From the IMG/VR virus record IMGVR_UViG_3300009509_000073, positions 1 to 31,752 of that record: a stretch of DNA of 31,752 bases, one strand, 5' to 3'. This DNA comes from a virus. This document shows positions 1 through 31,752 of the stretch, one piece after another. A program made the position numbers and the translations under genes. How positions within the stretch are numbered: the first letter of the stretch is position 1; each line of letters starts with the position of its first letter. Below the pieces are notes generated by a model. The model saw only the letters and a program-made list of their open reading frames with translations. It searched no databases and had not been told where the DNA came from.

Positions 1-76
1 GCTTACTATCAATTGATGTTATTTTATCGTAGCTATCAACACCATAGCCGATTATATTAGAACGCAAGTTATCCAT
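1..76 (-). CDS. N-terminal fragment of a tail-region gene, cut by the window edge
   Basis: An ATG at 76-74 on the minus strand opens a frame that runs off the window after 25 codons (begins MDNLRSNIIGYG). A strong ribosome binding site, GAGGGG, lies just upstream and overlaps the end of the preceding gene, whose stop is only 4 bases before this start. It is therefore the next gene of the leftward tail operon. By position after the hub-like genes it could be a distal tail, fibre or host-recognition protein, but 25 residues are too few to assign a family. Confidence 0.6.
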   Translation of the reverse strand, partial: MDNLRSNIIGYGVDSYDKITSIDSK

Positions 77-80
77 TGAA

Positions 81-12579: not shown

Positions 12580-13476
12580 TTATCTAATCGCGTTTACCTT
12601 TTTTTCTTCAGTATACTGTTCGTATAGTTTCGGATCTGCTTTGATAACCTTGCTAAACGCTTGAGGCCGCTTCATTTCTGGATTATCAGTAAGCATTTTT
12701 GATACACGCTTATCGATTTCATTCATCGCTGTCGAATCACCTTTAATTGAACCGATTTCATGAAAAGCAATATTGTCGCGAATCATATTATTTGCTGCTT
12801 TAAGCGATCCTATCATCGCGTTAAATTCAGTCGTACTAAGACTTTTAGACATTACTCGCAAAGTCTTACTGAGTGCGGTTGTTTTCATGCCTGGAATATA
12901 TTGAAGCTCTTTAGCTTGTTTTTCGAAGCGGGCGACTTCTTCCTTTTCCTCAAGTTCGGCTACTCTTTTTTGAAGCTTGATATTCGCTGATTTCAGGCGC
13001 TTATTGATTTCGGAACCGGCTTTATCTTCTTCTTCATCAGCTTTATTTTCTTCATTGTCGACTTTATCTTCTTCTTCATCAGCTTTGTTTTCTTCATTGT
13101 CGACTTTGTCTTCTTCTTCATCAGCTTTATTTTCTTCATCGTCGGCGTTTTCTTTGTCGACTTCAGCGGCTTCAGCTAAAGCCGCCATGATAATTGCAGC
13201 GTCGCTTTCGTTGAGCCCTTCTAAAACTTCCTCTAGAGTTTTACCAGATGATGGTTCACCCTCTTGTTTTAGAAACCTTTTTAACAACTTCATCAATTCT
13301 CTTTTATTCATTGCAGATCCCTTTTTTTGTTTTGTGATTAAAATTGGAACATCGACGCCTTCGCCTTCATCGACAAAAGATACTTCATCAATATTGCGCA
13401 TTGTTAGTAGCGTTTTTTTAGGTGTTTTTTTTTCTTCACTATTGCGCGACTTTTTAAAAAATTTTTTTTTAAACAT
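12580..13476 (-). CDS. Capsid scaffolding protein, with protease-tail segment at its N terminus
   Basis: A 298-residue charged helical protein. Residues 27-50 (RNIDEVSFVDEGEGVDVPIL) match the string that normally ends XkdF-type phage proteases. From residue 56 an ordinary scaffold begins: basic MNKRELMKLLKRFLK, a very acidic repeat region at 114-155 and then a long coiled coil around 158-190. An ATG at 13311 (residue 56) with AAAGGG just upstream could be an internal start for scaffold alone. The N terminus is Lys/Phe-rich, and its codons contain A9 and T6 runs that are slippage-prone. The start overlaps the protease stop in TAATG. Confidence 0.8.
   Translation of the reverse strand: MFKKKFFKKSRNSEEKKTPKKTLLTMRNIDEVSFVDEGEGVDVPILITKQKKGSAMNKRELMKLLKRFLKQEGEPSSGKTLEEVLEGLNESDAAIIMAALAEAAEVDKENADDEENKADEEEDKVDNEENKADEEEDKVDNEENKADEEEDKAGSEINKRLKSANIKLQKRVAELEEKEEVARFEKQAKELQYIPGMKTTALSKTLRVMSKSLSTTEFNAMIGSLKAANNMIRDNIAFHEIGSIKGDSTAMNEIDKRVSKMLTDNPEMKRPQAFSKVIKADPKLYEQYTEEKKVNAIR
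13012..13137 (-). repeat. Three tandem 42-bp coding repeats in the scaffold gene
   Basis: The 14-residue unit EENKADEEEDKVDN is present twice and then a third time with its final residues changed to AGS (residues 114-127, 128-141 and 142-155). The DNA copies are nearly identical, so the array probably arose by recent slippage and copy number may vary between related phages. The resulting acidic linker separates the N-terminal part from the coiled coil. Confidence 0.9.
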
Positions 13477-18151: not shown

Positions 18152-18561
18152 TTATCAGCTTGAGTTTTCTTGACGAGATTGCGTAATGTTTTTAATTCAT
18201 CGACATTTAAATTGGATAGCCTGTTTTTTTGCGGTTTATCTGGAGTAACATCTTTTGTTTCGACAACGCTCGTTTCGCGCCACTGACATTGAGTTTTCAA
18301 ATAAAAAATAATAGCGGTTAAATTGCCCGCTTCTATTTGTTCCCACAATTTTTTTGTTACACGCGATGCGTGTTCAGATCTACCTTTTTTATATGCGGTA
18401 TTTAAAGCTTCATTGTTTGATTTTTTTTTCCTAAATGTTCTTTCTTCAATTCCAATAACTAAACAAATTTGTTCTTCAGTCAAACCTAGTCCAGCCAACA
18501 CCTTGACTTGAGTTATTTGTTCATCGGTTAAATCTATACGTGGTCGACCGCGTTTAGCCAT
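18148..18561 (-). CDS. terS: Small terminase subunit (helix-turn-helix)
   Basis: A 137-residue protein from the ATG at 18561; upstream in-frame ATGs are possible, but this one has GGA at the right distance. It begins MAKRGRPRIDLTDEQ, with an AT-hook-like GRPR. A helix-turn-helix covers about 15-45 (GLTEEQICLVIGIEERTFRK). A helical oligomerisation region follows (SRVTKKLWEQIEAGNL), and then 'FYLKTQCQWRE', which is a pattern seen in many small terminases. It directly precedes and overlaps the large terminase gene. The pair would recognise the packaging site. Confidence 0.8.
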   Translation of the reverse strand: MAKRGRPRIDLTDEQITQVKVLAGLGLTEEQICLVIGIEERTFRKKKSNNEALNTAYKKGRSEHASRVTKKLWEQIEAGNLTAIIFYLKTQCQWRETSVVETKDVTPDKPQKNRLSNLNVDELKTLRNLVKKTQADK

Positions 18562-19876
18562 TATCATCATCCAGGTTAAGATTACTGAAATCTATATCAC
18601 CTAACCTTGAAGCAGCTTTTTTAGGACTACCTTTAACAAAGCATAATATGTTTTGATGCGTTTTTCCTAATTTCCGTGACCCGTTGAACGGTTGCTGAAC
18701 TCGTAAAGGCAATGTTCCTATAGGGGTTATTAGTATAGCTTCATTGTAATAGCTATATCCCGCATCAATAAAGGCTGAAATGGTATCACTCACGAAATTA
18801 TAATAATGACCGCGCTTATCGCGTATTTCGCCGACGACGAAAATTGCAAAGCTATTATCATTCATAATATTATAGGTCGCCTTGATTATATCTGAATATG
18901 CAACAACAAATTCATCATACTCTAGATTACTTATATCGCCCGGCAAGTCAGAATATTTTTCAAGATAAGCATAAGGTGGACATGATATAAGCAAGTTAGC
19001 AGTTACATTTACATATTGTTGAATATGCCTACTATCGCCGGTAATCCAAGTTGGATTTTCAATAATATTATTTATGCTTGATGCCTGTTTCTTATTCGCA
19101 TCTATTTGTTCCTGTCGTATATCAAGACCGATGTATTTACGTCCCATATATCCAGCGATAAGGCCTCTGACAGAGCCACCTGCGAACGGGTCTATTACTA
19201 TATCGCCATGACTTGAAAACCATAGATATATTAGTTCACATAGAACAGGGTCGAAAACACTTGTGCCTATAGCATCTAACAAATCATCATCACGACCCTT
19301 ATGTGATAAAACTCCTCGTTTTCGCCAGTGAATTTTTCTTTCTTGCCAATCATGTTTTCTCGCATCTAATACAGTGAATGGAGGTACTCCGTATTTGTTG
19401 CGTAAATGACCATTATTAATAATATCGTCGTCATAGCGATCTTTCAGATCGCCCATAACAGAATCGATGACAGGTAAATCAATGGAGTCAAGGACATCAC
19501 CATACTCATCGTTAATGCTTGATACAATTTCTTTTAACATAGCATTGTCGAATTCTGCCATCGCCGCGAGCGGATCAATCGTCGCAAGTATAAGTTTTTC
19601 CTCTTTTTCCGAAACATCGATATAAGAAACAGGAATTTTTTTAATGCCTTCATTGAGCGCCATCTCAACGCGTAAGTGGCCATCAACAAGATTTCCTGTT
19701 CGCTTATTGACGATAATTGATTGCACATAGCCGACTTCATTCAATACATTTTTTAATCCATTTTGCTGGGAAACAGGATGAACACGCCAGTTATGTTTGT
19801 TTTTATTGATCGACTTAGGATCTACTGTATCATGGCCGATAATACGACTTGACCACTTTTGTTTTTTTGTCACCAT
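18554..19876 (-). CDS. ParB-like domain fused to a DNA methyltransferase (440 aa)
   Basis: A 440-residue two-domain protein. The N-terminal ParB/Srx-like domain has the motif VDGHLRVEMA at 64-73, with His67 and Arg69. The C-terminal half is an amino-methyltransferase, with the SAM-binding DPFAGGSVRG at 229-238, 'GRKYIGLDIR' and the catalytic SCPPY at 298-302. This fits the N6-adenine or N4-cytosine class of enzymes, with SAM motif before or after the catalytic one depending on class. Related fusions occur in many phages. It probably modifies phage DNA to evade restriction. It overlaps the small terminase gene by eight bases. Confidence 0.85.
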   Translation of the reverse strand: MVTKKQKWSSRIIGHDTVDPKSINKNKHNWRVHPVSQQNGLKNVLNEVGYVQSIIVNKRTGNLVDGHLRVEMALNEGIKKIPVSYIDVSEKEEKLILATIDPLAAMAEFDNAMLKEIVSSINDEYGDVLDSIDLPVIDSVMGDLKDRYDDDIINNGHLRNKYGVPPFTVLDARKHDWQERKIHWRKRGVLSHKGRDDDLLDAIGTSVFDPVLCELIYLWFSSHGDIVIDPFAGGSVRGLIAGYMGRKYIGLDIRQEQIDANKKQASSINNIIENPTWITGDSRHIQQYVNVTANLLISCPPYAYLEKYSDLPGDISNLEYDEFVVAYSDIIKATYNIMNDNSFAIFVVGEIRDKRGHYYNFVSDTISAFIDAGYSYYNEAILITPIGTLPLRVQQPFNGSRKLGKTHQNILCFVKGSPKKAASRLGDIDFSNLNLDDDNG

Positions 19877-21148: not shown

Positions 21149-22210
21149 CTAAGCAGTGCAAGGTATTGCGAATTTTTCGATTAATCCGTCGACAATTCCA
21201 CTCAGCATAGAATCGCAACGAACACTTTCTGGAATAGTATCAAGTTCTTGTTTAGCAAGGCGTTCAATCATTTCACGTTCTTCATCACTAAGCTTTTCGG
21301 TGGTTTCAGCTATGCGTTGTTTTCTGTCTTGTGTAGTCGCTGTTCGTTGTGTTATTTCATTCAATAACGACGTTGACTTTATAGTCTGTGTGGCCGGAGT
21401 GTTCCTCACGCTCCGGTCGTTTTGAATCGTCGTTAACACGTAACCTATACCAGCGCCTTTAGCAACCGCCTTGGCCTTGTGAATAGCCGTAACAGCTTCC
21501 CCCATAGTTATAGGACACATCAACTTAAGGCGCTGAGTATGTTTTCCGATACCGCCGAGATTAAATTTTTTGGTCACTTCCAAAAATTCAAAGTAGTCGA
21601 GTTTAATATCGGACTTTTTATCCGGCATAGAAAAATAAGTATGATCCGGTATATGGGTCTGTTCTTCTCTTGGTTTCATAGGAATTTCAGTCATGGCTGC
21701 AATTTCAATTTTTTCGTTACGTGTATCGAGATCCGCACTATTATCTAAGTAAGATCTCACATATTTATTCAGATCTGTATTATTAATATTCTTATCTGAT
21801 CTTATCTTATCTAGCGAGGGACAGTCCCGGGACAATTGGGTTAAATGTTTACTTTCACTCAATAATTCCTGTTTCTTTTTTGCGCGTTGTTGCCGCTTTT
21901 TTAGTCGCTCTGCTATAGTACCCTGATAGTCATACCAGTCATGGATTTTGACGCCTTTTTTTGTCGTATCGAAAAATTTATATTTTTTGAGTGCTGAAAA
22001 AAATTGCCCTTCTTCTCCATCCCATTCGATAGCTGTTTCTATATCGTCGATATCATAGTTATACAATACGCCGTCCGGCGCGTATTCAAGGCACCAATGC
22101 CAGAGTGCTAAAAGGCGACCTGCTAGCTCGTATTTACTGCGACCTAATAATCGGCTAAGTTTAAGCATTTTTGGATGTCTGAGAAAATTATCGTGTACTT
22201 TAATCCACAT
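21149..22210 (-). CDS. Phage replication initiator / replisome organiser-like protein
   Basis: A 353-residue protein. The first ~115 residues form a winged-helix domain like the N-terminal domain of phage replisome organisers, with 'MWIKVHDNFLRHPKMLKLSRLLG', 'YELAGRLLALWHWC' and 'HDWYDYQGTIAERLKKRQ'. A low-complexity, Asn/Asp-rich linker (about 125-175) and a second domain follow. The C-terminal 90 residues are charged and helical. The first gene of the leftward operon, with GGGG at the ribosome binding site. It probably binds the phage origin and recruits host helicase. No helicase or primase gene is visible in the window, so the phage would use host replication proteins. Confidence 0.75.
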   Translation of the reverse strand: MWIKVHDNFLRHPKMLKLSRLLGRSKYELAGRLLALWHWCLEYAPDGVLYNYDIDDIETAIEWDGEEGQFFSALKKYKFFDTTKKGVKIHDWYDYQGTIAERLKKRQQRAKKKQELLSESKHLTQLSRDCPSLDKIRSDKNINNTDLNKYVRSYLDNSADLDTRNEKIEIAAMTEIPMKPREEQTHIPDHTYFSMPDKKSDIKLDYFEFLEVTKKFNLGGIGKHTQRLKLMCPITMGEAVTAIHKAKAVAKGAGIGYVLTTIQNDRSVRNTPATQTIKSTSLLNEITQRTATTQDRKQRIAETTEKLSDEEREMIERLAKQELDTIPESVRCDSMLSGIVDGLIEKFAIPCTA

Positions 22211-22334: not shown

Positions 22335-22469
22335 TGTTTATCTTTCTTGGCGAAAGAGTTAACCGCTTAAAGCTTGTTCCAGCAGGCTTTGAGCAGCGTC
22401 ACAAGAAGTCGTAAATAGTAGTAACAAAAATGAATCGAAAAACAAACCTAAATTTTACTACTCATTAAA

Positions 22470-22516
22470 AAAAAATTTCGCCGGTCCCGGTAACATAGCT
22501 TCTATGGGGACCGGCG
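22470..22516 (-). terminator. Strong leftward terminator upstream of the leftward operon
   Basis: CGCCGGTCCC at 22479-22488 pairs with GGGACCGGCG at 22507-22516, a perfect 10-bp GC-rich stem. Inside the 18-base loop CATAG and CTATG can pair again. On the minus strand the stem is followed by AAA and then a run of nine T. On the plus strand there is no T run, so the element is directional. It would end transcripts that enter leftward from 22517 or beyond, before the leftward operon. Confidence 0.85.
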
Positions 22517-22594
22517 ATCCCTCCCCCATATATTTCGCAACTCTAAGCAATATAATGATTTAATAACTTTAATTGTATAGTTACATAAAAACTA

Positions 22595-25678: not shown

Positions 25679-25984
25679 ATGAACCACGACTTTGAAAAAT
25701 CGGTTGCTGAAATTTTTTATGGAAATGATACCGAAAGTAAAGCCTACAAAAAATATAATGTTAAAGAACTCGATATGGATGTCATTAAAAAAGCTATAGA
25801 AAAAATCAATGATAATTACCCTGGAATTATTACGTCAATATATCAGAAAGATCTTGAAGGTAAAACTTTACCGGCAGAAACGGCGACGCGATTACTCGCA
25901 ATCAGTTATAACAATTGTATTCATCTAGCGAGTATAATCGATCGGCTTATCAAAAAATATAATCTCGATAAGCCTGATAATTAA
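25679..25984 (+). CDS. Small protein of unknown function, long form of a duplicated pair (101 aa)
   Basis: A 101-residue protein beginning MNHDFEKSVAEIFYGND. Its last ~34 residues (TRLLAISYNNCIHLASIIDR, then LIKKYNLDKP) recur in the next gene, and the first ten residues are also similar. The middle 45 residues (DMDVIKKAIEKINDNYPG and following) are absent from the copy. Both proteins are charged and helical, and contain an Asn-Cys pair before His-Leu. They may form homo- or hetero-oligomers. Function unknown. Confidence 0.75.
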   Translation: MNHDFEKSVAEIFYGNDTESKAYKKYNVKELDMDVIKKAIEKINDNYPGIITSIYQKDLEGKTLPAETATRLLAISYNNCIHLASIIDRLIKKYNLDKPDN

Positions 25985-25993
25985 GGACAAAAA

Positions 25994-26161
25994 ATGAACA
26001 ACGAATTAGAACAATTGGTTGCTGAAAAAATAAGAATGGATCTTGAAAAAGCGACAGAACTACTTGAAATCAGTTTTCACAATTGTGTTCATCTTGCTGA
26101 AATAATCGAACACCTAATAGAAAAATATAAACTCGATAAGCCTGCAACCACCGACAATTAA
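25994..26161 (+). CDS. Short paralogue of the preceding gene (55 aa)
   Basis: A 55-residue protein beginning MNNELEQLVAEKIRMD and ending LDKPATTDN. It starts 9 bases after the previous stop with an AAGGAC ribosome binding site. Nearly the whole sequence aligns to the preceding gene: the N-terminal ten residues to its N terminus and the rest (ATELLEISFHNCVHLAEIIE, then HLIEKYKLDKP) to its C terminus. It looks like a duplication with an internal deletion of about 45 codons. Conserved reading frame and differences mostly at changed residues suggest both copies are functional. Confidence 0.75.
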   Translation: MNNELEQLVAEKIRMDLEKATELLEISFHNCVHLAEIIEHLIEKYKLDKPATTDN

Positions 26162-26174
26162 ACGCGAGCAACTC

Positions 26175-27254
26175 ATGGCAATAAATAAAGTATTAAATAA
26201 AGCGGGAAAGATCCGCTTTCAGATATCGTTTTATTATTTCGATAAAAATGGTGTCAAACAACGCTATCGAAAATATGCTCTCGGAACAAATAAAACCGCT
26301 GCTATCAATGAAGAAAACACAATCAGAAATAACATAGCTCGCGGCGTGTTCCCGGGGGAGATCAAGAACACGCCGCGCCCACCAAACATGCCTTCTTTCG
26401 CGAAAGACTGGTTGTCATTATACGTCAAAGTAAACTCGAAACCAAGTTACTACGAAACAATGAAAAGTATCGTTGATAACCACATAATTCCATTTTTTGG
26501 TAAAAAAAAACTCGACGATATCAAAACAATCCATGTCGAAAAATTTAAGCAGCGGCTTATCCAGCGCGGTTTAAAGGCGCGGTCAATAAATACATATCTT
26601 AAAGCATTGTCCTCGATCTTCAGCGTCGCTGTTCAATGGGAACAAATCAAAGTAGCACCGAACATAAAAATGCTTAAGCCGCCGCCGCAAGAATTCGATT
26701 TCTTATCGCCGGGCGATATCAATACTTTGATTGTTGGTTGCGAAACAATCGGCGACTTTGAACTCAAGCGAATGATTTTAACCGCTATTCATACGGGATT
26801 GCGCATAGGCGAGCTATGTGCGCTGCAATGGGATTGCATAGACTTTGAGCGAAGTTCATTGACCGTCAAGCGTTCGCTATCATATAACGAAATACAACCG
26901 CCTAAAAACAACAAGTCTCGCGAGATACCGCTCAATGACATCGCTATAATGGCGATCAAAGAACAGCGACATCTAAAATCGCAATTTGTTTTTTGTGATG
27001 ATAATGGAAATCATTACACGATAACACGAAAAAATACGGCGTTAAATCAAGCTTTGCGCGTTGTCGATATGAGGCATATACACTGGCATGTTTTCAGGCA
27101 TACTTTTGCAAGCCTTTTAATTTTAAACGGCGCAAATCTGCGTAGTGTTCAAGCGCTTATGGGTCATTCAAATATAAATGAGACTATGCGATACAGTCAT
27201 TTATCACACGACATCAATCGCGACGCTGTTCGTCGCCTTCAAAACATCGGGTAA
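26175..27254 (+). CDS. int: Tyrosine recombinase (integrase)
   Basis: A 359-residue integrase with the full catalytic set: Arg210 in HTGLRIGELCALQW, a likely Lys at 244 or 247, His305 and Arg308 in HVFRHTFASLL, His331 in MGHSNI and nucleophile Tyr340 in TMRYSHL. The N-terminal arm-binding part (1-60), then the SAM-like core-binding domain (about 70-165), are also present. It should integrate the phage into the host chromosome. The ribosome binding site is weak, so expression could depend on coupling or on regulation. Nothing nearby looks like a classical excisionase, although two small helix-turn-helix proteins are present elsewhere. Confidence 0.95.
   Translation: MAINKVLNKAGKIRFQISFYYFDKNGVKQRYRKYALGTNKTAAINEENTIRNNIARGVFPGEIKNTPRPPNMPSFAKDWLSLYVKVNSKPSYYETMKSIVDNHIIPFFGKKKLDDIKTIHVEKFKQRLIQRGLKARSINTYLKALSSIFSVAVQWEQIKVAPNIKMLKPPPQEFDFLSPGDINTLIVGCETIGDFELKRMILTAIHTGLRIGELCALQWDCIDFERSSLTVKRSLSYNEIQPPKNNKSREIPLNDIAIMAIKEQRHLKSQFVFCDDNGNHYTITRKNTALNQALRVVDMRHIHWHVFRHTFASLLILNGANLRSVQALMGHSNINETMRYSHLSHDINRDAVRRLQNIG
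26340..26377 (+). repeat. Perfect 12-bp inverted repeat inside the integrase gene
   Basis: CGCGGCGTGTTC at 26340-26351 and GAACACGCCGCG at 26366-26377 form a perfect GC-rich 12-bp stem with a 14-base loop, over codons 56-68 of the integrase. The surrounding DNA is AT-rich and no T run follows, so it is not an intrinsic terminator. Confidence 0.8.
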
Positions 27255-27387
27255 CAGCAAGGTAATTCAGCTCCTTAGTTAATAGCCCGGTATAAAGCAT
27301 TATAATGATTTCATGTAGTAATTGATGCATAAGTAATATATATTTTTTGCCAACGGCAAATTATACATTGCTGTGAAAGGATTTAAT

Positions 27388-27618
27388 GTGATTGAATTTT
27401 TTTTAGTCCTTATAACGTTACTTTTTTGTGTGTTGAGTCATCAACTACACCTCGTCATCAAATCGCTGCAAAATTTTAATAGGCATGAAAGAAATCGACT
27501 TAACGAGTTATTCAGACTATTCGCCGCAACTACGTATCACTGTAATATATGCGGTCATAGAAGCTTAAATGAAACTGAGATTGATGATCACATAACAAAT
27601 AAACATCCAAGCGAATAA
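27388..27618 (+). CDS. Membrane-anchored C2H2 zinc finger protein (76 aa)
   Basis: A 76-residue protein with start GTG at 27388, chosen because AAAGG lies seven bases before it; a GTG at 27373 is possible in the same frame. Residues 2-24 form a hydrophobic helix (EFFLVLITLLFCVLSHQL). After a basic stretch, a C2H2 finger appears: C52, C55, H68 and H73 (C-x2-C-x12-H-x4-H), in YHCNICGHRSLNETEIDDH. This combination is odd for a phage. It could tether a DNA or protein partner to the inner membrane. Next to the integrase gene, but unrelated to known xis genes. Confidence 0.7.
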   Translation: MIEFFLVLITLLFCVLSHQLHLVIKSLQNFNRHERNRLNELFRLFAATTYHCNICGHRSLNETEIDDHITNKHPSE

Positions 27619-27628
27619 AGGATTATCG

Positions 27629-27841
27629 ATGTCTTCCACGGTTTATAATTTTATTGTTGGTGGTCTCATGCATGAAAAAAATTTAAAAGTTGGAACTAAA
27701 GTTGTTTATATCAATAACGAAAAATGCGAACTTGTTAAGACCACATCAAAGCCATTCCAATCAAGCAGCGGCGAATGGCTTGTTCGTATATCCGGCCATG
27801 GGCTTGCTGTCGCGCTTAATTCAATTAATGAACTCATGTAA
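27629..27841 (+). CDS. Small protein of unknown function (70 aa)
   Basis: A 70-residue protein beginning MSSTVYNFIVGGLMHEKNLK, with AAAGGA before the ATG. The second half (VGTKVVYINNEKCELVKTTS and 'GEWLVRISGHGLAVALNSINELM') is likely a small beta barrel of about 45 residues, of a type often found in phage proteins. The stop codon lies in the first copy of the 70-bp tandem repeat that follows, and the 3' end of this gene resembles the repeat unit. No function assigned. Confidence 0.7.
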   Translation: MSSTVYNFIVGGLMHEKNLKVGTKVVYINNEKCELVKTTSKPFQSSSGEWLVRISGHGLAVALNSINELM

Positions 27842-28008
27842 GAAATCTTTGAAGAAATCTTTTGCTACGTAATTTTTATGACTTGCTGTATCACTCTTAA
27901 TTCTCATGTAAGAAATCTTTGAAGAAATCTTTTGCTACGTAATTTTTATGACTTGCTGTATCACTCTTAATTCCCATGTAAGAAATCTTTGAAGAAATCT
28001 TTCGCTAC
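27836..28008 (+). repeat. 70-bp tandem repeats (about 2.5 copies) with six identical 10-bp dyads
   Basis: Units start at 27836, 27906 and 27976; the first two differ by one base, and the third stops after ~34 bases. Each unit carries two copies of AAGAAATCTT spaced 12 bp apart (27840 and 27852, 27910 and 27922, 27980 and 27992). The 10-mer is a dyad (AAGA..TCTT). The rest of the unit (CTTGCTGT...CTTAATTC...CTCATGTAAG) resembles the 3' end of the gene just upstream, so the array seems to derive from it. Confidence 0.9.
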
Positions 28009-28125
28009 AAATTAAGTTAGCAATTAATACCAATACAACTATTAATGTATCGTGTTATTACTCGAAGTGTATCAATACAATCAATAATACTTTATAAGTA
28101 GCTGAAATCATTACATACTTTTTTC

Positions 28126-28153
28126 TTGCAATCTTGCAATTAAATGTTATAAT
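28126..28153 (+). promoter_or_regulatory. Sigma70-type promoter for the small-gene cassette
   Basis: TTGCAA at 28126-28131 and TATAAT at 28148-28153 are separated by 16 bases. A second TTGCAA (28134-28139) and a second TATAAT (28154-28159) offset by six or eight bases may give an alternative. The -10 is a perfect consensus. Confidence 0.75.
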
Positions 28154-28160
28154 TATAATA

Positions 28161-28179
28161 GTTAGAGTTTAACTCTAAC
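28161..28179 (+). promoter_or_regulatory. Palindromic operator at the transcription start
   Basis: GTTAGAGTT-T-AACTCTAAC is a perfect 9-1-9 inverted repeat starting eight bases after the -10 box. Its size and position, across the expected +1, are those of a repressor binding site. A ribosome binding site (AGAGGG) follows 2-8 bases later, so binding would block initiation. Confidence 0.8.
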
Positions 28180-28194
28180 TAGAGGGCGTATAAA

Positions 28195-28386
28195 ATGAAA
28201 GATTTTAGGGATGCTTATATTTGGTCGGAAGATGATGAAAAAGCCGCCGAGGAAGAGTACAAAAAAGCCGCTGCTGTTTGTAAGAAAAAGGGGCATGCCT
28301 GGCAAACAGATTCTGACCCTGAATATGGGTCGGAAGAAATGTATTGTGATAGATGTGGACTAGTTCACACAGCCTATCACGGATAG
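28195..28386 (+). CDS. Small protein with a C/H metal-binding-like pattern (63 aa)
   Basis: A 63-residue protein beginning MKDFRDAYIWSEDDEKAAEE. C29 and H34 (CKKKGH) are followed by C51 and C54 (YCDRCGLVH), which suggests a small zinc site similar to that found in many short phage proteins. It is the first gene after the operator-controlled promoter. Codon use (few CG dinucleotides) differs from the phage's other genes. No function assigned. Confidence 0.7.
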   Translation: MKDFRDAYIWSEDDEKAAEEEYKKAAAVCKKKGHAWQTDSDPEYGSEEMYCDRCGLVHTAYHG

Positions 28387-28431
28387 TTAACCAAAAACAC
28401 GTGCAGCTTAGGCTGCAATAGGAGGCCAAAA

Positions 28432-28728
28432 ATGGCTAAAACAAAAAATGTAACAACAATAAGAATCGAAAAAATGGCTAAATCTTACGAAGCCAAGATG
28501 CTTCGTAGGATTGAGAACTACAAACAAAAACTTGAAGAGCAAGCAAAATCTGGCTCAGAACTACTAGAAAAACAAATTGAGCTAGAATCACTCAGGGAAG
28601 AGGGAAAAGAAATAAGCCTCCTAATTAAAGAGGCAAGAAAAAAATTAAATTTCGTACTAGAAAGGGGTCGAGAAAACAGAGCTGCGAAAAAAGAAATCCT
28701 CGAAGAAATTGAAAAGATCAAAAAATAA
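28432..28728 (+). CDS. Coiled-coil protein of unknown function (98 aa)
   Basis: A 98-residue, almost fully helical charged protein with a strong AGGAGG ribosome binding site. From about residue 15 to 98 it has continuous heptads (RRIENYKQKLEEQAKSGSEL and so on), typical of a dimeric coiled coil. Arginine codons are AGA/AGG, unlike the CGC-rich use in the main phage genes, which may mean recent acquisition. A small hairpin (TGCAGC/GCTGCA at 28402-28417) lies before it. Confidence 0.75.
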   Translation: MAKTKNVTTIRIEKMAKSYEAKMLRRIENYKQKLEEQAKSGSELLEKQIELESLREEGKEISLLIKEARKKLNFVLERGRENRAAKKEILEEIEKIKK

Positions 28729-31687: not shown

Positions 31688-31703
31688 TGCTTAAGCCCTT
31701 TAT

Positions 31704-31751
31704 TTACTGGGGTTTAGGTTTGTCATAGATTTTTATATTGCTGATTATTCC
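31704..31751 (-). CDS. C-terminal end of a gene cut by the window edge
   Basis: On the minus strand a frame enters from the right edge and reads GIISNIKIYDKPKPQ before TAA at 31706-31704. The next gene starts 17 bases later with its ribosome binding site in the gap. The other two frames hit stops early or lack a suitable end. By position it may be the end of a tail fibre or related gene. Too short to identify. Confidence 0.45.
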   Translation of the reverse strand, partial: GIISNIKIYDKPKPQ

Positions 31752-31752
31752 A

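What the first reader, a model, noticed from the sequence alone, without database searches (positions are those of the whole stretch)
27629..28008. 70-bp repeats with six identical dyads, apparently derived from a gene's 3' end
Two almost identical 70-bp units and a part of a third carry AAGAAATCTT pairs at a fixed 12-bp offset, six sites in all, phased by 70 bp (about 6.7 turns). The outer part of the unit resembles the last 40 bases of the upstream gene, so an original 3' end was copied in tandem. Such arrays are typical of iterons, partition sites or cooperative operators. They sit ahead of the separately promoted cassette.
Basis: seen in the sequence. Interest (0 to 1): 0.6.

Follow-up and report, generated by a model that had tools for sequence, protein, structure and literature searches.

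The report
Probable phage integrase-binding attachment-site repeats
A temperate phage carries three back-to-back pairs of a 10-base DNA word past its integrase gene; they most likely are sites its integrase grips when inserting the phage into a bacterial chromosome, an ordinary role in an unusual tandem layout.

Summary
The repeats are real. Two identical 70-bp units (27833-27902, 27903-27972) and 36 bp of a third (to 28008) carry AAGAAATCTT six times, as three head-to-tail pairs with a 12-bp offset, and the unit does resemble the 3' end of the upstream gene. They lie 586-738 bp past the stop of a lambda-type tyrosine integrase gene (26175-27254).

In 115 non-redundant phage loci with related integrases, exact direct-repeat pairs at 10-12 bp offset are about tenfold enriched in the 300 bp after the integrase stop and fall to background beyond. 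That is the layout of arm-type integrase sites in attP, and the same scan recovers the published sites of phage Pixie. The best reading is an attP arm array, with the strand-exchange core perhaps in the gene-free stretch 28009-28125.

Iteron or partition roles are not supported: the GC-skew minimum is at about 22-23 kb and the only ParB-like protein found is a methyltransferase fusion.

Weak points: the array lies farther from int than in relatives, no second arm is visible, no relative shares the sites, and host and attB are unknown. A neutral tandem duplication or an operator array remains possible. Interest is modest.

The parts
26175..27254 (+). Tyrosine integrase (359 aa) of lambda/Tn1549 type, proposed binder of the array
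   Evidence: Pfam Phage_integrase 1.3e-32 and Phage_int_SAM_3 8.4e-14; phrog_1 integrase 4.6e-76; model aligns along full-length lambda Int
26175..26339 (+). Integrase N-terminal domain, residues 1-55, beta-beta-beta-alpha, candidate arm-binding domain
   Evidence: AlphaFold2 models; fold search with the domain alone not significant
27629..27841 (+). 70-aa ORF of unknown function whose 3' end is homologous to the repeat unit (diverged 'unit 0')
   Evidence: no family match and no tblastn match in phages
27833..27902 (+). 70-bp unit 1
27903..27972 (+). 70-bp unit 2, identical to unit 1
27973..28008 (+). partial third unit
27840..27861 (+). site pair 1, AAGAAATCTT x2 at 12-bp offset, proposed arm-type sites
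27910..27931 (+). site pair 2, proposed arm-type sites
27980..28001 (+). site pair 3, proposed arm-type sites
28009..28125 (.). gene-free AT-rich stretch, proposed (unproven) location of the attP core
   Evidence: inference from the order int - pair - element end in relatives and from published attP sites

Best explanation
The array is the arm-type (integrase N-domain) part of the phage attachment site attP. The integrase encoded at 26175-27254 would grip the AAGAAATCTT sites with its N-terminal domain, adjacent monomers on the two sites of a pair, while its other two domains act at a low-affinity core that probably lies in 28009-28125. The three-pair layout probably grew by tandem duplication of a segment reaching from the neighbouring gene's 3' end through one pair. 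Shown: the repeats, the integrase and its domain order, and the enrichment of such pairs beside related integrases. Inferred: that this integrase binds these sites, the position of the core, and the history of duplication. Not known: host, attB and the second arm.
For: In 69 non-redundant loci with related integrases, exact direct repeats of >=9 bp at 10-13 bp offset occur at 0.92 per kb in the 400 bp after int, 0.04 before it and 0.09 elsewhere. In 115 loci the density is 1.63, 0.67 and 0.36 per kb in the first three 100-bp bins and background beyond, and all 25 pairs within 300 bp have offsets 10, 11 or 12 (binomial P about 1e-14). Four loci have two pairs of one motif 169-232 bp apart, as two arms around a core would be. 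The scan recovers the published arm sites of phage Pixie. Paired 10-bp direct repeats flank the attP core 3' of int in Cluster J phages, and six-site attPs are reported in Pixie and O. oeni phages. The window's only other such pair lies inside the int gene. The integrase is of the three-domain type. The sites are unchanged in all copies while the gene-end part diverged (rough Fisher P 0.03).
Against: The array is 586-738 bp from the int stop with two ORFs between, a distance at which relatives show only background density. Three pairs at 70-bp steps and no recognisable second arm within 27154-28700 differ from the two-pair layout of relatives. The three pairs are not independent, being copies of one another. 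The offset range scanned was chosen after seeing the window's pairs. The N-domain fold search was not significant. No relative shares the sites, and no core, attB or host was identified.
Confidence: 0.55

Rival explanations
1. Operator array: the pairs bind a phage or host transcription factor (head-to-tail dimers or cooperative dimers on the partial dyads) that controls the cassette promoter at 28126-28153 or read-through from the integrase operon.
For: The sites have partial dyad symmetry (AAGA-TCTT) and lie 125-290 bp upstream of a promoter-like sequence with an extended -10. Direct-repeat operators are common (established knowledge).
Against: The cassette promoter already has its own perfect 23-bp palindrome at 28159-28181. 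The array is far upstream for a repressor, and no copy of the pair lies at another promoter in the window. A promoter-like match is at chance frequency here.
Confidence: 0.17
2. Neutral minisatellite: slippage first doubled a 12-bp stretch, then duplicated a 70-bp stretch; nothing binds it.
For: Units 1 and 2 are identical, so the last duplication is recent. Another gene and its partial copy lie in tandem upstream of int (25679-26144), so this region duplicates readily. No conservation can be shown.
Against: The nested 12-bp pair has the form and offset found beside related integrases, and the paired sites have not changed while the gene-end part has.
Confidence: 0.2
3. Iterons of a replication origin or a centromere-like partition site.
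For: Tandem direct repeats; a replication-initiator homologue and a ParB-like domain are encoded in the genome.
Against: The GC-skew minimum and the initiator gene are at 21-23 kb, about 6 kb away. The ParB-like domain is fused to a DNA methyltransferase and no ParA was seen among the proteins checked. An integrating phage does not need plasmid partition.
Confidence: 0.04

Closest known systems
Mycobacteriophage Pixie attP (PMC3203893)
   Same: Six arm-type sites, mostly direct, including a pair at 12-bp offset
   Different: Sites lie on both sides of a known tRNA core and upstream of int; no 70-bp duplicated units
Cluster J mycobacteriophage attP (PMC3706429)
   Same: attP on the 3' side of int; pairs of 10-bp direct repeats
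   Different: One pair on each side of a 44-bp core about 100 bp from int; sites imperfect
Oenococcus oeni phage attPF (PMC8074189)
   Same: Six 10-bp direct repeats as putative arm sites
   Different: [quoted passage not shown] integrase unrelated in detail
Phage lambda attP
   Same: Three-domain integrase; annotated int-binding run overlaps the 3' end of a gene (27814-27854 over int), as pair 1 overlaps the stop of ORF 27629
   Different: Sites too degenerate for the exact scan; core within 100 bp of int; mapped experimentally

Membership tests
attP of a heterobivalent tyrosine integrase | Linked tyrosine integrase gene | tested here: met
   26175-27254
attP of a heterobivalent tyrosine integrase | Integrase with an N-terminal arm-binding domain | tested here: inconclusive
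   beta3-alpha order predicted and full-length alignment to lambda Int; domain-only fold search not significant
attP of a heterobivalent tyrosine integrase | Repeated arm-type sites about 10-12 bp apart | tested here: met
   Three exact pairs at 12-bp offset
attP of a heterobivalent tyrosine integrase | Sites close to the int gene, as in relatives (within 300 bp) | tested here: not met
   586-738 bp away with two ORFs between; proximity is usual, not a strict requirement
attP of a heterobivalent tyrosine integrase | Core identical to host attB, with arms on both sides | not testable with these tools
   Host not identified; no second arm seen within 27154-28700; no tRNA remnant
attP of a heterobivalent tyrosine integrase | Integrase binds the sites | not testable with these tools
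   Needs gel shift or footprint
Iteron replication origin | Repeats next to the initiator gene and at the skew switch | tested here: not met
   Initiator at 21149-22210, skew minimum about 22-23 kb
Partition site (parS-like) | Linked ParA/ParB pair | tested here: not met
   Only a ParB-domain methyltransferase; no ParA among the proteins checked

The most novel reading that the evidence does not exclude
The 70-bp unit contains an attachment core as well as an arm pair, so attP is a tandem of two or more complete core-plus-arm modules that incorporate the 3' end of a neighbouring gene. The phage would then carry a multi-core, extendable attachment site whose copy number tunes integration or excision.
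Probability: 0.06. Interest if true: 0.65.

Novelty: new member of a known kind. Interest (0 to 1): 0.33.

Why it matters
It gives a concrete, testable attachment-site prediction for a phage with no close relatives in the collections searched. The comparison also yields a simple signature, exact direct repeats of 9-15 bp at 10-12 bp offset within 300 bp of the integrase stop, that finds putative integrase arm sites in phage contigs without knowing the host or attB. If the array is attP, its recent 70-bp duplication would show how the number and spacing of arm sites can change quickly.

Tried and rejected
Exact 22-mer search of IMG/VR: none. Single-sequence searches for relatives of int, ORF 27629 and terminase: none close. 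DNA similarity to sequenced phages: none. Genome-contig scans with int: no relatives, so host and attB stayed unknown; the genome search draws no relatives for a virus record. RNA element: no structure beyond shuffles on either strand, no Rfam match at gathering score. tRNA-overlapping core: no tRNA or tRNA piece found. Origin at the array: GC skew points elsewhere. Synteny with 80 terminase-related loci: the ORFs flanking the array do not recur. Fold search with the integrase N-domain alone: nothing significant. A second copy of the cassette palindrome: none.

Full report
Observation. The window is a whole IMG/VR record of 31,752 bases, classed linear, with no close relatives found. At 27833-28008 there are 2.5 copies of a 70-bp unit. 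Units 1 and 2 are identical; the third is a 36-base piece with two changes. AAGAAATCTT occurs six times as three head-to-tail pairs at 12-bp offset, against 0.23 copies expected in the whole window. A pair of at least 11 matching bases at 10-13 bp offset occurs in 0.15% of shuffles of 27255-28194. The part of the unit ahead of the dyads matches the 3' end of ORF 27629-27841 apart from an 11-bp gap and a few substitutions, so the gene end behaves as a diverged 'unit 0'. The paired sites are identical in all copies. A rough contrast (about 6 changes in 30 positions of the gene-end part, counted by hand, against 0 of 23 in the paired sites) gives Fisher P = 0.03, a weak sign of constraint.

Context. 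The + strand gene order is RecE-like exonuclease, a phrog_3657 protein, small ORFs, integrase (26175-27254), ORF 27373-27618, ORF 27629-27841, the array, a promoter-like sequence followed by a perfect 23-bp palindrome (28126-28181), then a cassette of small genes. The structural and lysis genes are on the other strand and appear to continue across the contig ends, which suggests a circular or permuted genome cut near a tail gene. The array therefore sits at the end of the integrase operon, a usual place for the attachment site of a temperate phage.

Comparative test. I collected loci encoding related tyrosine integrases (nearest ones 36-43% identical) and scanned them for exact direct repeats of at least 9 bases at 10-13 bp offset. 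In 69 non-redundant loci there were 18 pairs in the 400 bp after int (0.92 per kb), 1 in the 400 bp before it (0.04 per kb) and 33 elsewhere (0.09 per kb). In 115 loci the density fell with distance from the int stop: 1.63, 0.67 and 0.36 per kb in the first three 100-bp bins, then 0.06 (300-500), 0.11 (500-1000) and 0.04 (1000-2000); all 25 pairs within 300 bp had offsets of 10, 11 or 12. Allowing one mismatch, four loci carry two pairs of the same motif and orientation 169-232 bp apart (L029, L086, L196, L211), as two arms around a core would be. The scan also recovers the published arm sites of phage Pixie (PMC3203893), though not those of lambda, which are more degenerate. The motif differs from phage to phage. 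The window's pairs have the same form: exact, direct, offset 12.

Integrase. The protein belongs to the lambda/Tn1549 type: the predicted model aligns along the full length of lambda Int, and its first 55 residues have the beta-beta-beta-alpha order known for arm-binding domains (the comparison with Tn916 and lambda N-domains is from general knowledge). A fold search with that domain alone was not significant, so this is supportive only.

What does not fit. In relatives the pairs lie within 300 bp of int; here they are 586-738 bp away with two ORFs between, where relatives show only background. There are three pairs at 70-bp steps, and no second arm is visible within 27154-28700. Conservation cannot be tested. 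The offset range was chosen after the window's pairs were known, and the three pairs are copies of one another. These points hold the confidence to 0.55.

Rivals. An operator array for the cassette and a neutral minisatellite both remain possible. A second tandem duplication upstream of int (25679-26144) shows that this region duplicates readily, which helps the neutral reading. Iteron and partition readings are disfavoured by the GC skew, the position of the initiator gene and the lack of a ParA/ParB pair among the proteins examined. There is no RNA structure beyond chance.

Mechanism proposed. Adjacent integrase monomers bind the two sites of each pair with their N-domains and bridge to a core, placed provisionally in 28009-28125 because relatives and published phages with attP 3' of int have the order int - arm pair - core. 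Tandem duplication has given three pairs and so more bridging options. Binding, core position and host site are not shown.

Verdict. A real repeat array, most likely a new example of a known kind (attP arm-type sites) in an unusual layout; modest interest.

Noticed in passing
window 22466-22518, minus strand: Strong GC-rich hairpin followed by nine T in the 510-bp gene-free divergent region upstream of the replication-initiator gene (-29.5 kcal/mol, z -2.9); looks like a terminator or attenuator. No Rfam family matches at gathering score. No repressor gene was identified in the phage.
   Followed up: partly
window 25679-26144: A 101-aa ORF is followed by a partial, diverged copy (77-84% identical stretches) just upstream of int: a second tandem duplication in the same region.
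   Followed up: no
window 28126-28181: Promoter-like sequence with extended -10 followed by a perfect 23-bp palindrome TAGTTAGAGTTTAACTCTAACTA, single in the window: probable operator of the small-gene cassette.
   Followed up: partly
window 1-80 and 31690-31752: A minus-strand reading frame starting near 78 runs off the contig start; tail and lysis genes continue from the left end to the right end, so the record is probably a circular or permuted genome broken near a tail gene.
   Followed up: partly
window 18554-19876, minus strand: ParB-like N-terminal domain fused to a DNA methyltransferase next to the terminase genes.
   Followed up: no
window 13019-13144: 21- and 42-bp tandem repeats inside gene 12580-13476 encoding an acidic NEENKADEEEDKVD protein repeat.
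   Followed up: no
downstream of int in L011, L016, L029, L034, L086, L189, L196 and others: Putative arm-type integrase sites: exact direct-repeat pairs at 10-12 bp offset within 300 bp of the integrase stop, a different motif in each phage.
   Followed up: yes
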